Assembly (NCBI GenBank): GCA_022729235.1
Contig: JALDAJ010000001.1
Location: 638,442-702,441 of the forward strand
Length of the DNA stretch: 64,000 nucleotides
Reading direction: 5' to 3'
Origin: Candidatus Nanohalarchaeota archaeon
Lineage (GTDB): Archaea > Nanohalarchaeota > Nanosalinia > Nanosalinales > Nanosalinaceae
Within the stretch, counting starts at the first letter, position 1. Each line of letters begins with the position of its first letter. The position numbers and the translations under genes were made by a program. Shown in pieces: positions 46,087 to 49,767 of this stretch. Below the pieces are notes generated by a model. The model was not told the DNA's origin. It saw only the letters and a program-made list of their open reading frames with translations, and ran no database searches.

Positions 46087-46164
46087 ATGAGTTGTAACTG
46101 TTCTAGAGAGGATGATGAGGACAAGAAAGGCTGTGGTTGTGGCGACGACTGCGGTTGTAACTGA
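46087..46164 (+). CDS. Tiny Cys-rich (metallothionein-like) peptide
   Basis: 25 residues: MSCNCSRE, an acidic DDEDKK core, then GCGCGDDCGCN. Six Cys occur as C-x-C pairs (3/5, 16/18, 22/24), the pattern used by metallothioneins and other metal-binding peptides. It starts at ATG 46087, shortly after a TATA box, and ends 45 bases before tRNA-Cys on the same strand. No database match is claimed. Possible roles are metal buffering or a cysteine-sensing leader; its six Cys codons would make translation sensitive to charged tRNA-Cys. Confidence 0.6.
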   Translation: MSCNCSREDDEDKKGCGCGDDCGCN

Positions 46165-46209: not shown

Positions 46210-46280
46210 GCCGGGATGGCAGAGTAGTTATGCGTCCGCCTGCAGAGCGGACGACCTGGGTGCAAATCCCAGTCCCGGCT
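46210..46280 (+). tRNA. tRNA-Cys (anticodon GCA)
   Basis: 71 nucleotides. Acceptor arms GCCGGGA (46210-46216) and TCCCGGC (46273-46279) pair fully, with U73 at 46280, the cysteine discriminator. Anticodon stem GTCCGC...GCGGAC encloses CTGCAGA with anticodon GCA. T stem CTGGG/CCCAG holds a TGCAAAT loop, in which the usual TTC is TGC. No intron. A T-run follows directly. CCA is not encoded. Confidence 0.95.
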
Positions 46281-46331: not shown

Positions 46332-46763
46332 ATGACGGAATACTTTGAGGACACCACCGATGTCGCTGTCCTGGTCATAAGGAACCGGACGGATGACGGC
46401 GACTACTACCTTATCGCCCGGCACAGGGGAAACGATTTCTGGGAGTTCGTTGGTGGTAAAAGAAAGAAAGATGAAAGTATCGAACACGCAGTCTACAGGG
46501 AGCTTTCAGAGGAGATAGAAATTGACTGGGATTCCGATGAAGTCGATATTGTTAAGACAGGAGACTCGTTTGAGAGCCCTATAAATCCGGTTTATGAACT
46601 CTATCCTGTGCTTGTTGATATACCTGAGGAGGTCGCATGGGAGCTTGGAGACGAGGATTTGTCCTCCTCACATACCAGTCTGAAATGGATAAAAATCGAG
46701 GAACTAGAAAACTTTGAAACCTATGGAGAGAGGGAGGCGCTGGAGAGTCTTGGTGTCTTATGA
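46332..46763 (+). CDS. Nudix hydrolase
   Basis: 143 residues. The Nudix box G-x5-E-x7-R-E-x-x-E-E is present as GKRKKDESIEHAVYRELSEE, with the following G-U replaced by I-E-I. Nudix enzymes hydrolyse nucleoside diphosphate derivatives; the substrate is unknown. It begins 51 bases after tRNA-Cys and its TGA overlaps the ATG of a 20-codon remnant (ATGA). It opens an array of Nudix domains. Confidence 0.85.
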   Translation: MTEYFEDTTDVAVLVIRNRTDDGDYYLIARHRGNDFWEFVGGKRKKDESIEHAVYRELSEEIEIDWDSDEVDIVKTGDSFESPINPVYELYPVLVDIPEEVAWELGDEDLSSSHTSLKWIKIEELENFETYGEREALESLGVL

Positions 46764-46822
46764 GTGAATACGAGACCGTTGGTGATCATAAAGGTTTGAA
46801 GAAGCTGGGTTTGATTGAGTGA
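46760..46822 (+). pseudogene. 20-codon remnant of a Nudix gene
   Basis: The frame MSEYETVGDHKGLKKLGLIE starts at the ATG overlapping the previous stop and ends at 46822. Its beginning looks like the start of a Nudix gene of this array (compare MSEEEF at 47598), and its end LKKLGLIE looks like their common C-terminus (LKAAEKLGVV; ALESLGVL). The middle is missing, so it is probably what is left after an internal deletion. Alternatively it is a chance micro-ORF. Confidence 0.4.
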
Positions 46823-46843
46823 TATCCTGTTATCTTAACAATA

Positions 46844-47605
46844 TTGGCTAAGCATTACGTGTATATGGGAGAGTCTGAGAACCTAATTGTCTGCGTGGCT
46901 AGATCAGTATCTGATGAAGAACATTACTTATTACAGAGTTCTGATGAGGGATGGGAATTTCCGGTAGGGCATATTGGTGCAGAGGAAGTGCCTGAGGAGG
47001 CTGCAATAAGAATGTTGGAGCAGGAATTTGGTCTAACTGGAGAGATAGAACGGGCTGGTGATTTGAAAGAGAATATTTATCCGGTTCTAGTTAACATTGA
47101 CTTCAAGCAGGTAGAAAGATGGGAGGAGTCTGGCTACCGATGGTTTACGCCTCTTGAAATGACCGATCTCGACATTCAGGACTCTTTTATGATTCTAGAG
47201 GAGCTAGATCTCGTGAACGGTGATGTGGTTACTGTGCTGGTTGAAGAAGGAGGAGCGTTCTTGATAATGAAGCGTTCAGAAGAGAAATCAAGTTCTGGTT
47301 ACTGGAACTTCATAGGCGGTAGAATTGAAGAGGACGAAACCGTAGGAGACGCTGCATTGAGAGAAGCTAGTGAAGAAGCAGGTTTAACAGGAGCGGTTAT
47401 AGAGATTGGTGAACCATATCTTAGTTCGGGCGAGCTAGGTTTCTGGAGAATACATCCTGTTCTAGTTGAGACAGAGGATAAAACTGTCGAGCTTAACTGG
47501 GAACATTCTGAACATAGGTGGATTAAACTAGAGGAAATAGAAGACATGAAAACACTTAGTTCACTTAAAGCAGCTGAAAAGCTAGGAGTGGTAGACTATG
47601 AGTGA
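46844..47605 (+). CDS. Double-Nudix-domain protein
   Basis: 253 residues from a TTG at 46844; an ATG at 46865 would give 246. The N-terminal Nudix domain is degenerate (GHIGAEEVPEEAAIRMLEQEFG), lacking the R-E of the box. The C-terminal domain has an intact box GGRIEEDETVGDAALREASEEAG. Such tandem copies with one dead domain suggest duplication and use as dimer-like unit. It overlaps the next Nudix gene by 8 bases, so they are cotranscribed. Composition is AT-richer than cysS downstream. Confidence 0.8.
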   Translation: MAKHYVYMGESENLIVCVARSVSDEEHYLLQSSDEGWEFPVGHIGAEEVPEEAAIRMLEQEFGLTGEIERAGDLKENIYPVLVNIDFKQVERWEESGYRWFTPLEMTDLDIQDSFMILEELDLVNGDVVTVLVEEGGAFLIMKRSEEKSSSGYWNFIGGRIEEDETVGDAALREASEEAGLTGAVIEIGEPYLSSGELGFWRIHPVLVETEDKTVELNWEHSEHRWIKLEEIEDMKTLSSLKAAEKLGVVDYE

Positions 47606-48026
47606 AGAAGAGTTTCCTGTTATTGTAGCTGCGTTGGTTACTAGCCAGAGAGATGTTCTGATTGGTAAGAAAGAGTCTGGAGAGAATCCTGTTTCAGAAC
47701 AATGGCATTTGCCGGGAGGTCATTTAGAAGAAGATGAGGATCTGAGAGAAGCTGTTAAAAGAGAAATTAGCGAAGAGACGGATTTGGATGTTGAAATTCA
47801 TCATATAGTAGATGTTTACAAAGGAGAAATAGGTGCGGTAAGAATAATTTTCCACTGTGAAGCAAGTGATCGAGATATAGATGCTGGAGACGATCTTGTT
47901 GACATTAAATGGGTTTCTCCAGAGAACTTAGAAGAAGAGCTTGGAGATTATGATTCGGAGATAGTATCTGAGAGAGACAATATCAGAAATTTTGTTGAGA
48001 AACTGCAGAAGATGCCGTCATTCTAG
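47598..48026 (+). CDS. Nudix hydrolase
   Basis: 142 residues. The box is GGHLEEDEDLREAVKREISEET, with G-x5-E, R-E-I and E-E; the terminal G of the box is D. WHLPGGHL precedes it as in MutT/ADP-ribose pyrophosphatase-like enzymes. It starts inside the end of the double-Nudix gene (8-base overlap). Fourth Nudix domain in 1.7 kb. Substrate not determinable. Confidence 0.85.
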   Translation: MSEEEFPVIVAALVTSQRDVLIGKKESGENPVSEQWHLPGGHLEEDEDLREAVKREISEETDLDVEIHHIVDVYKGEIGAVRIIFHCEASDRDIDAGDDLVDIKWVSPENLEEELGDYDSEIVSERDNIRNFVEKLQKMPSF

Positions 48027-48079
48027 ATTTCTAGGCCGTACGATTTTTTTCTGCAGTATCTTCTCTTCTGATTGGATTT

Positions 48080-48095
48080 TTGATCATATGATCAA
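48080..48095. promoter_or_regulatory. Perfect 16-base palindrome upstream of the cysS leader
   Basis: TTGATCATATGATCAA is its own reverse complement. It lies 42-57 bases upstream of the TATA-like box at 48137, in the 141-base gap after the Nudix array. A dimeric regulator could bind here, activating or repressing the downstream leader-cysS unit. Confidence 0.45.
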
Positions 48096-48136
48096 TATTC
48101 TAACCCTCTCATTGGGCTTTTCTGCTCCGACCTACA

Positions 48137-48145
48137 TTTTTAATT
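48137..48145 (+). promoter_or_regulatory. TATA box of the cysS leader transcript
   Basis: TTTTTAATT is centred 27 bases upstream of the ATG at 48168, so the transcript would begin at that ATG (leaderless). A second possible TATA (gttttaact, about 48243-48251) lies closer to cysS and could drive a leader-free transcript. Confidence 0.45.
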
Positions 48146-48167
48146 GTTTAGGCGTTAGTTCAAAGTT

Positions 48168-48206
48168 ATGATTATGAGCAGTGATCGTTTTTGTCCGTGT
48201 CACTGA
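48168..48206 (+). CDS. Candidate leader peptide of cysS
   Basis: Twelve codons: MIMSSDRFCPCH. Two of the last four sense codons are Cys (TGT). It starts 27 bases after a TATA-like box and ends 76 bases before cysS. The coding sequence overlaps an inverted repeat: GAGCAGTGA (48176-48184) can pair with TCACTG at the stop (48200-48205) or, more strongly, with TCACTGCTC (48223-48231). Ribosome position at the Cys codons could choose between them. This is the logic of an attenuator; there is no experimental support. Confidence 0.4.
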   Translation: MIMSSDRFCPCH

Positions 48207-48231
48207 ATTGTTTCTGTTAGATTCACTGCTC
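48176..48231 (+). promoter_or_regulatory. Alternative hairpins between leader peptide and cysS
   Basis: Strand 1 GAGCAGTGA (48176-48184) is complementary to strand 2 TCACTG (48200-48205; 6 pairs, 15-base loop) and to strand 3 TCACTGCTC (48223-48231; 9 pairs, 38-base loop). The two pairings exclude each other, so they could form a switch. Strand 2 covers the leader stop codon. Confidence 0.45.
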
Positions 48232-48282
48232 TACCTGAAAAACCGTTTTAACTCTGCGCCCCGTTCTTCGTGATAGGGCTCC

Positions 48283-49767
48283 ATGGCACTGAAACTCTAC
48301 AATACACTGACGCGGGAAAAAGAAGAGTTTGAACCGAAGGAAGAAGGAAAGGTCAAGTTCTACAGCTGTGGACAGACGATTTACGACGATCTGCACATCG
48401 GTAATGCGCGTCCCTATGTTTACTGGGACACACTGAGACGTTACCTTGAATGGAAGGGTTACACGGTCCGGCATGTCCAGAACATAACTGATGTCGGCCA
48501 CCTGACCGACGACGGCGACCAGGGAGAGGATAAGGTGGAGAAACGCGCCTCCGAGCTGGGTGTGGAGCCGATGGAGCTGGTAGAGTCGCAGATTGAACGA
48601 TATTTCGAGGATACAAAGGCGTTGAACATCGAAAGACAGGACATCGTCCCGCGCGCCACCGGACATGTCAACGAGATGATAAACTATGTCCAGGAGATAA
48701 TAGATAACGGCTACGCGTACGAACGCGACGGCAATATTTACTTCGACATGGATGCCTACCTGGAAGACTACGAGTACGGTGAGATGGCGAAGAAGGATAT
48801 CGAACAGTTAAAGGAGGAGGCGGAATCGAGAGTGGAGCCAGACGAGAAGAAAAAGAACCAGTACGACTTCGCTCTCTGGCTGAACGCGGAAGGCACGGGA
48901 CATCTTATGAGGTGGGGTGCCACGTTCCAGGTCGACGGTGAAGCAGTTAAGGTCGAGGGCTATCCAGGCTGGCACCTCGAATGCTCGGTTATGAGTCAGA
49001 AATACCTGGGAGACGAGTTCGATATACACGCCGGCGGTAAGGACCATATCTTCCCGCACCACCCGAATGAACGGGCTCAATCCTTCGCGGCGACGGGAGA
49101 AGGTCAGGCACGTTACTGGCTGCACAACGAGTTCATAACCATCGAGGGCGAGAAGATGTCCAAGTCCGAGGGCAACTTCTACACCGTCCGGGATTTACTT
49201 GACGAGGGCTACTCCGGCGACGCCATACGTCTTTATCTCGTCTCCTCTCACTACAGGAGCGAGACCGACTTCTCGAAGGAAGGATTGGAGAAGGCGGAGA
49301 AGGAGTTGAGGAAGATCCGGAAAGTAGTACAGAAGATAGGCTGGGATGAGGACTACAGGGGTAAGAATCAGTTCGGAGAACCTGGAGAAGATGAAGAAGG
49401 TTATGTTGAAGAGTTCGAGAAGCGGATAGACGATGATTTTAACACGGCTAAGGCCAAGCAGTTCTTGATGAAACTTGTCTCTGAAGCCAACGAGACCCTG
49501 GAAAAGAATCCGGAGGAGGGAGAAAGTCTGTACGCTGTAGGCTATGGAAACTTCCTGATTGAGGCATTTGAGATACTAGGGATTGATGTCCGGCCAGAAG
49601 TGTCGGAGGGAGAGGCTGAGATGGCGGACACGCTTCTTGAGGTTCGTGAAGAGTACCGTGAACGTGGAGACTACGATGAGGCGGACCGTATCCGCGATGT
49701 CCTTGAGGAGAACGGTTTCGAGGTCGAGGACACGGAAGACGGTGCCCGCTGGTTCAAGGTGGGATGA
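48283..49767 (+). CDS. cysS: Cysteinyl-tRNA synthetase
   Basis: 494 residues. Class I signatures: zinc Cys in FYSCGQTIYD, HIGH as HIGNARPY, the zinc/selectivity block GWHLECSVMSQ...HAGGKDHIFPHHPNE, and KMSKSEGNF. The C-terminal helical anticodon-binding region ends in a recognisable R-x-x-x-G-D-Y-x-E-A-D-R-I-R-D stretch. It charges tRNA-Cys, encoded 2 kb upstream. A gene-specific promoter (gttttaact) and a leader ORF with alternative hairpins precede it. The stop overlaps the next ATG by 4 bases. Confidence 0.96.
   Translation: MALKLYNTLTREKEEFEPKEEGKVKFYSCGQTIYDDLHIGNARPYVYWDTLRRYLEWKGYTVRHVQNITDVGHLTDDGDQGEDKVEKRASELGVEPMELVESQIERYFEDTKALNIERQDIVPRATGHVNEMINYVQEIIDNGYAYERDGNIYFDMDAYLEDYEYGEMAKKDIEQLKEEAESRVEPDEKKKNQYDFALWLNAEGTGHLMRWGATFQVDGEAVKVEGYPGWHLECSVMSQKYLGDEFDIHAGGKDHIFPHHPNERAQSFAATGEGQARYWLHNEFITIEGEKMSKSEGNFYTVRDLLDEGYSGDAIRLYLVSSHYRSETDFSKEGLEKAEKELRKIRKVVQKIGWDEDYRGKNQFGEPGEDEEGYVEEFEKRIDDDFNTAKAKQFLMKLVSEANETLEKNPEEGESLYAVGYGNFLIEAFEILGIDVRPEVSEGEAEMADTLLEVREEYRERGDYDEADRIRDVLEENGFEVEDTEDGARWFKVG

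What the first reader, a model, noticed from the sequence alone, without database searches (positions are those of the whole stretch)
48080..48283. Possible attenuator-like leader peptide ahead of cysS in an archaeon
Seen: a 12-codon ORF (48168-48206, MIMSSDRFCPCH) starts 27 bases after a TATA-like box, has two Cys codons just before its stop, and lies 76 bases before cysS. Its sequence GAGCAGTGA can pair with TCACTG at the stop (6 pairs) or with TCACTGCTC further on (9 pairs); the two exclude each other. A perfect palindrome lies upstream. Inference: ribosome stalling at Cys codons when charged tRNA-Cys is low could select a hairpin and change cysS transcription or translation. Leader-peptide control is well known in bacteria but hardly described in archaea. 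Chance remains possible because the ORF is short.
Basis: partly seen in the sequence, partly recalled or inferred. Interest (0 to 1): 0.72.

Follow-up and report, generated by a model that had tools for sequence, protein, structure and literature searches.

The report
Conserved cysteine-codon leader before archaeal cysS
A tiny gene with a conserved cysteine codon sits just before the cysteinyl-tRNA synthetase gene in many salt-loving dwarf archaea, which looks like a built-in cysteine sensor of a kind so far known from bacteria and not shown in archaea.

Summary
The window is a Nanohaloarchaeota genome. The 12-codon ORF 48168-48206 (MIMSSDRFCPCH) has counterparts directly upstream of cysS in 12 genomes of 8 genera: two nanohaloarchaeal families and one Nanoarchaeota family (there as uORF - tRNA-Cys - cysS). 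The consensus is M-x-x-x-R-[F/V/L]-C, core CGT-NTT-TGY-C. A motif search hit once per genome in six family genomes, always at cysS. Nanohaloarchaeal leaders have a TATA box placed for a leaderless start (29-32 nt before the ATG), or a TATA further up plus a Shine-Dalgarno. Indels keep the frame, and one genome uses the synonymous TGC. The 9-bp arm pairing (48176-48184 with 48223-48231) recurs in four genera, with covariation (Fisher p about 7e-6 over five genera, partly post hoc). The rival 6-bp hairpin occurs in two genomes; the palindrome is not conserved. Two facts limit the attenuator reading. A stronger TATA (48246-48252) lies between leader and cysS here, so a leader-free transcript is likely too. 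Only one Cys codon is conserved, and folding does not show that stalling frees the cysS start. Best reading: a cis-acting Cys-codon leader tuning cysS to charged tRNA-Cys, mechanism level open.

The parts
48137..48144 (+). P1: TATA box (TTTTTAAT) of the leader transcript, 31 nt before the first ATG
   Evidence: TATA at 29-32 nt before the uORF ATG in 7 of 7 leaderless nanohaloarchaeal leaders; at 43 nt plus an SD in G022/G025
48168..48206 (+). Leader ORF (uORF) MIMSSDRFCPCH*; the conserved start is the second ATG at 48174 (MSSDRFC...)
   Evidence: Conserved before cysS in 12 genomes of 8 genera; consensus M-x-x-x-R-[FVL]-C
48186..48195 (+). Core CGTTTTTGTC: Arg-Phe-Cys codons plus the following C; sensing codon TGT 48192-48194
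   Evidence: YGTNTTTGTC in 10 leaders, with Tyr (TATTTTTGTC) in G031 and synonymous TGC in G116
48176..48184 (+). 5' arm GAGCAGTGA, overlapping the conserved uORF start codon
   Evidence: Pairs with 48223-48231; equivalent helix in g1, g4, g7, g8 and a rewritten one in G024
48223..48231 (+). 3' arm TCACTGCTC (9 bp with 48176-48184)
   Evidence: p=0.001 in this genome, Fisher p=6.6e-6 over five genera; covarying positions
48200..48205 (+). Alternative 6-bp partner TCACTG at the uORF stop
   Evidence: Present only in G000 and G006; weak support
48238..48252 (+). P2: promoter-like BRE/TATA (AAAAACCGTTTTAAC) between leader and cysS
   Evidence: Best hit of 48028-48283 with a promoter motif learned from the window; score 12.5 against 2.7 for P1
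48283..49767 (+). cysS, cysteinyl-tRNA synthetase, 494 aa
   Evidence: PF01406 E 1.3e-99, DALR_2, CysS_C
48080..48095 (.). Perfect palindrome TTGATCATATGATCAA; not part of the conserved unit
   Evidence: One copy here, one unrelated copy in G008

Best explanation
This is a translated, cis-acting leader ORF that couples expression of cysteinyl-tRNA synthetase (and of tRNA-Cys in the Nanoarchaeota relatives) to the supply of charged tRNA-Cys. An upstream promoter P1 makes an RNA that begins at or just before the uORF AUG. Ribosomes start on this 5'-terminal AUG and reach the conserved Cys codon, usually codon 7. If Cys-tRNA is scarce the ribosome waits there and, being only six codons from the 5' end, covers the AUGAGCAG arm, so the arm cannot pair with its partner upstream of cysS. 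If Cys-tRNA is plentiful the ribosome passes, terminates after a few to about 20 more codons, and the arm can close on its partner, shutting the uORF start and, where the partner abuts the cysS Shine-Dalgarno (genera g7, g8, g4), probably hindering cysS initiation. A second promoter P2 in many species supplies a basal, leader-free cysS transcript. Shown: conservation of position, start signals, frame, Cys codon and (in most nanohaloarchaeal lineages) the pairing. Inferred: translation of the uORF, ribosome waiting at the Cys codon, and the direction of the effect. Open: whether control is on translation or on transcription; the tRNA-Cys-cysS arrangement in the Nanoarchaeota family would fit transcription better.
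For: (1) The same ORF precedes cysS in G000, G002, G006, G009, G010, G012 (MSS...[RC]FC), G024 MAGDRVCLR*, G022/G025 MRHRSSREGVRLCR* and f9 G031 MVGGYFCLRR*, G105 MVGGRFCPGSSWL*, G116 MAGGRFCRGGSN*. (2) Whole-genome pattern search over the 28 phylum genomes: one copy in each of six leader-bearing family genomes, always at cysS; the one other hit, in G026, is unrelated. In 156 Nanoarchaeota genomes the f9-type pattern hits only f9 cysS loci plus one chance site. (3) Initiation signals: TATA 29-32 nt before the ATG (leaderless) or TATA at 43 plus SD-like AGAGGT. (4) Frame: distances ATG to core are 12, 18 or 30 nt; the G009/G010 indels keep the same stop. G022 and G025 uORFs are 98% identical (one synonymous change) against 81% upstream and 87% downstream. 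(5) G116 has TGC for TGT. (6) The uORF start pairs with the intercistronic region: p = 0.001, 0.0005, 0.016, 0.094 in g1, g4, g7, g8, and 0.026 in G024 where both arms have changed; Fisher 6.6e-6 over five f1 genera; positions 4, 5, 6 and 9 change on both sides. Pairing implies one RNA spans uORF and partner. (7) In G006, G022, G025 no TATA lies between uORF and cysS. (8) G022/G025 carry the leader before a distant, non-orthologous cysS, so the leader is tied to the function, not to one gene lineage.
Against: Only one Cys codon is conserved; classical attenuators usually use several. Leader absent from 10 of 16 family genomes with cysS, so dispensable. P2 in this genome is stronger than P1 by motif score. 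No pairing in G002, g15 or f9. Footprint folding gave no consistent opening of the cysS start: G009 easier by 4.5 kcal/mol, G006 harder by 3.5, others within about 1. The third codon bases are nearly all T, so part of the conservation may be RNA-level. In G000 and G024 the 3' arm lies 50-78 nt from cysS, too far to block its start directly. The 11-nt arm and the start at 48174 were chosen after seeing the data. No transcript, ribosome-profiling or starvation data.
Confidence: 0.58

Rival explanations
1. The uORF is a separate micro-gene (small peptide or small RNA with its own promoter P1), and cysS is transcribed from P2; neighbourhood without cis-regulation.
For: Strong P2-like site in G000 and TATA-like sites near cysS in G002, G009, G010, G012, G024. 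In f9 G105 and G116 a TTTTAA box precedes tRNA-Cys, after the uORF.
Against: The peptide varies outside R-[FVL]-C and in length (9-30 aa), unlike a functional protein; always same strand and just upstream of cysS or tRNA-Cys-cysS; uORF-intercistronic pairing; no P2 seen in G006, G022, G025.
Confidence: 0.17
2. The conserved object is an RNA element (CGUNUUUGYC plus the start-codon helix) read by a protein such as CysRS itself or another regulator; the Cys codon is incidental.
For: Near-invariant third codon bases (CGT, TTT and TGT are minor codons here: 92/948 Arg, 203/741 Phe, 45/127 Cys), a fixed C after the Cys codon, and changes at the first base of the middle codon (F/V/L).
Against: Frame kept through indels, AUG plus start signals in frame, synonymous TGC in G116 and a synonymous Arg change in G022/G025; no Rfam family or conserved local hairpin around the core.
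Confidence: 0.17
3. Transcription attenuation or polarity rather than translation control: uORF translation state decides whether RNA polymerase from P1 continues into (tRNA-Cys and) cysS, or whether P1 transcription interferes with P2. This is a variant of the best explanation at another output level.
For: In f9 a tRNA gene lies between uORF and cysS, so the first target there is not translated; P1-uORF-P2 order recurs.
Against: No consistent T-run terminator after the uORF was seen by eye; the pairing next to the cysS Shine-Dalgarno in g7, g8, g4 fits translation control.
Confidence: 0.3
4. Chance ORF.
For: The ORF is short; random sequence gives two or more Cys codons in 11 with p about 0.06; R-[FVL]-C micro-ORFs such as MGDRLC* in G043 do turn up.
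Against: Twelve genomes, 8 genera, two phyla, same place, same kind of start signals.
Confidence: 0.01

Closest known systems
Polycysteine-encoding leaderless uORFs of mycobacteria (Shell 2015, PMC4633059; Canestrari 2020, Mol Microbiol, doi 10.1111/mmi.14498, known here through PMC9031893)
   Same: Leaderless short ORF with Cys codon(s) upstream of a Cys-related gene; cysteine-responsive control of downstream translation
   Different: Bacterial; several contiguous Cys codons near the C-terminus, upstream of cysA2 and other Cys-metabolic genes; here one conserved Cys codon, usually codon 7, before cysS or tRNA-Cys-cysS, with a start-codon helix, in archaea
Ribosome-mediated transcription attenuators (trp, his, leu, ilv leaders of bacteria)
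   Same: Short leader ORF holding codons of the cognate amino acid, mutually exclusive pairings downstream (in G000 and G006)
   Different: No intrinsic terminator after the leader seen; downstream gene is an aminoacyl-tRNA synthetase; archaeal promoter and leaderless start
erm-type translation attenuation
   Same: Short leader ORF; a ribosome waiting near the 5' end would free an RNA arm that otherwise pairs near the next gene's ribosome site
   Different: Signal would be uncharged tRNA-Cys, not a drug; pairing involves the leader's own start codon
T-box riboswitch of bacterial cysS
   Same: cysS leader responding to tRNA-Cys charging
   Different: No T-box or other Rfam match in 47500-49000; translated ORF instead of tRNA-binding RNA

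Membership tests
Ribosome-mediated amino-acid attenuator | Short translated ORF in the leader of the regulated gene | tested here: inconclusive
   ORF, frame and start signals conserved; translation itself not testable; P2 may bypass it in this genome
Ribosome-mediated amino-acid attenuator | Codon(s) of the cognate amino acid conserved in the leader ORF | tested here: met
   One Cys codon kept in all 12 leaders, TGC in G116; the second Cys codon is not conserved
Ribosome-mediated amino-acid attenuator | Two mutually exclusive RNA structures, one switching the gene off | tested here: inconclusive
   Long-range helix supported in five lineages; the competing hairpin only in G000 and G006
Ribosome-mediated amino-acid attenuator | Terminator or ribosome-site sequestration controlled by stalling | tested here: inconclusive
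   No consistent opening of the cysS start with a stalled footprint
Ribosome-mediated amino-acid attenuator | Expression responds to starvation for that amino acid | not testable with these tools
   Needs expression data
Mycobacterial polycysteine leaderless uORF | Leaderless start | tested here: met
   By TATA spacing: 29-32 nt before the ATG in seven leaders including this one; G022/G025 look SD-led and f9 has a short 5' UTR. No mapped transcript start.
Mycobacterial polycysteine leaderless uORF | Run of contiguous Cys codons | tested here: not met
   Single conserved Cys codon; G006 CFCPC and G000 FCPC are the richest
T-box | T-box covariance model match | tested here: not met
   No Rfam hit up to E 5 in 47500-49000

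The most novel reading that the evidence does not exclude
An archaeal leader-peptide attenuator: a leaderless Cys-codon uORF, shared by nanohaloarchaea and a Nanoarchaeota family and found before two unrelated cysS lineages, that senses charged tRNA-Cys and controls CysRS (and tRNA-Cys) supply.
Probability: 0.5. Interest if true: 0.82.

Novelty: new variant of a known kind. Interest (0 to 1): 0.7.

Why it matters
A 2021 study states that no transcription attenuation or antitermination mechanism was known in archaea (PMC8448881), and an M. mazei Ribo-seq study lists candidate uORFs; the passages read there describe no mechanism for them. A phylogenetically conserved Cys-codon leader before cysS gives a concrete, small, testable case of amino-acid sensing by a translating ribosome in archaea, with a natural contrast between species with and without the leader.

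Tried and rejected
Chance ORF: rejected by conservation. T-box, snoRNA or other known RNA: no Rfam hit; C/D-box-like letters (ATGATTA, CTGA) are not conserved in G006, G009, G010. Palindrome as part of the unit: rejected (the other copy overlaps the start of an HTH-nucleotidyltransferase-like gene beside a cas2-like gene, named by eye). Local hairpin around the core (ACCGT...ACGGT in G024, TCGT...ACGA in G012): not present in others. Leader in other archaea: none of 24 other archaeal, 27 further Nanoarchaeota or about 33 cysS upstream regions (mostly bacterial) has the exact core motif (a few regions are cut by contig ends); G043 MGDRLC* is at a level that chance can explain. Cognate leader before ileS in the window: none seen, ileS has a TATA at leaderless distance. 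N-terminal extension of CysS: uORF and cysS are out of frame and separated by stops.

Full report
What was checked. The window lies in a 1.03-Mb single-contig genome whose named close CysRS relatives are all Nanohaloarchaea (e.g. L039 SG9, L038 M3_22, L045 Nanosalina J07AB43).

Conservation. CysRS was found in 16 of 19 genomes of the family. Six of them carry the same small ORF directly upstream: G000 MIMSSDRFCPCH, G006 MSSECFCPCH, G012 MSSDRFCLREDSSNKRSF, G002 MSSGRFCPGYRKT, G009 MSSRGGRFCHCRNRISASKNSSLKSVSTGL, G010 MSSKGGRFCLRKQFSVSTGL. A whole-genome pattern search across the 28 phylum genomes finds the motif once in each of these six and nowhere else in them; the single other hit (G026) is unrelated. 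In a second family G024 has MAGDRVCLR and G022/G025 have MRHRSSREGVRLCR. In family f9 of another phylum G031, G105 and G116 have MVGGYFCLRR, MVGGRFCPGSSWL and MAGGRFCRGGSN, followed by tRNA-Cys (with an apparent intron in G105 and G116) and then cysS; ARAGORN calls the intronless G031 gene as tRNA-Cys GCA. A pattern for the f9 type hits only f9 cysS loci plus one chance site in 156 Nanoarchaeota genomes. The same core is missing from 27 further Nanoarchaeota, 24 other archaeal and about 33 call-10 (mostly bacterial) cysS upstream regions, some of which are cut by contig ends.

Evidence that it is read as codons. The ATG lies 29-32 nt after the start of a TATA box in all seven leaderless-type nanohaloarchaeal leaders, the spacing of a leaderless start; in G022/G025 the TATA is at 43 nt and an SD-like AGAGGT precedes the ATG. 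ATG-to-core distances of 12, 18 and 30 nt keep the frame, and the G009/G010 indels keep both frame and stop. The G022/G025 uORF differs by one synonymous base in 45 while flanks are 81-87% identical. G116 uses TGC in place of TGT. The codons CGT, TTT and TGT are minor ones for Arg, Phe and Cys in the window, which fits slow decoding but also an RNA-level constraint.

Pairing. The first 11 nt from the conserved ATG were tested against the stretch between uORF stop and cysS, with dinucleotide shuffles: G000 p=0.001, G006 0.0005, G010 0.016, G012 0.094, G002 0.87 (Fisher 6.6e-6 for five genera), G024 0.026, G025 0.27. An earlier 14-nt version including the extra ATG of G000 gave a combined p of 0.002; the 11-nt choice was made after seeing the sequences, so the smaller value is optimistic. 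Positions 4, 5 and 6 change on both sides in G024, and position 9 is U-A, U-G or C-G. The 3' arm abuts the cysS Shine-Dalgarno region in g7 and G012 (-23 to -13), is near it in G006 (-29 to -19), and is remote in G000 (-60 to -50) and G024 (-78 to -69). f9 shows no such pairing before the tRNA.

Promoters. A promoter motif learned from the window puts the best site of the region at 48238 (AAAAACCGTTTTAA, score 12.5), between uORF and cysS, and scores P1 at 2.7 although P1 has the spacing typical of leaderless genes here. TATA-like sites near cysS also occur in G002, G009, G010, G012 and G024 but not in G006, G022 or G025. Leader-less relatives such as G008 and G001 have a TATA 30 nt before cysS. 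So the likely layout is P1-uORF-P2-cysS with two transcripts, and leader loss leaves P2 or an upstream operon.

History. In a CysRS tree the leader-bearing cysS of the home family, of G024 and of f9 fall in one clade (support 1.0), with G024 grouping with f9 (0.998), which suggests exchange of cysS with its leader between phyla. G022 and G025 have a distant CysRS, yet carry the leader.

Mechanism. The most likely reading is a cis-acting leader sensing charged tRNA-Cys at the conserved codon, with the arm near the start codon uncovered only when the ribosome has moved on. A ribosome waiting with codon 7 in its A site would cover about nucleotides 1-33 (general knowledge of footprints, not measured here). 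A folding test with such footprints did not show a consistent opening of the cysS start, so the output step is unproven; transcription-level control is the main alternative, favoured by the tRNA-Cys-cysS arrangement of f9. The literature searched holds no archaeal leader-peptide attenuator that I could find; a 2021 paper states none was known for transcription attenuation, and mycobacterial Cys leaders are the closest precedent. The library lacks most subscription papers, so absence there is weak evidence.

Noticed in passing
window 46087-46164 (+): A 25-aa Cys-rich ORF (MSCNCSREDDEDKKGCGCGDDCGCN) lies 45 nt before tRNA-Cys (46210-46280). Counterparts ending CGCxxxCxC or similar sit at the same place before tRNA-Cys in G018, G002 and G016; no Pfam match. 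Either a metal-binding peptide or a Cys-rich leader of tRNA-Cys.
   Followed up: partly
L088 (G023), L100 (G031), L125 (G105), L160 (G116): tRNA-Cys directly in front of cysS, with an apparent intron in G023, G105 and G116 that ARAGORN does not call.
   Followed up: partly
window 46332-48026 (+): Three consecutive NUDIX-domain genes between tRNA-Cys and cysS; a NUDIX-like ORF also seems to precede cysS directly in several leader-less relatives, judged by eye.
   Followed up: no
L159 (G008) near 1501-1516: The palindrome TTGATCATATGATCAA overlaps the start of an HTH-nucleotidyltransferase-like gene next to a cas2-like gene.
   Followed up: no
CysRS tree: CysRS of the home order is not monophyletic: G022/G025/G026/G020 and G019/G021 carry unrelated CysRS types, pointing to repeated replacement of cysS.
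   Followed up: no
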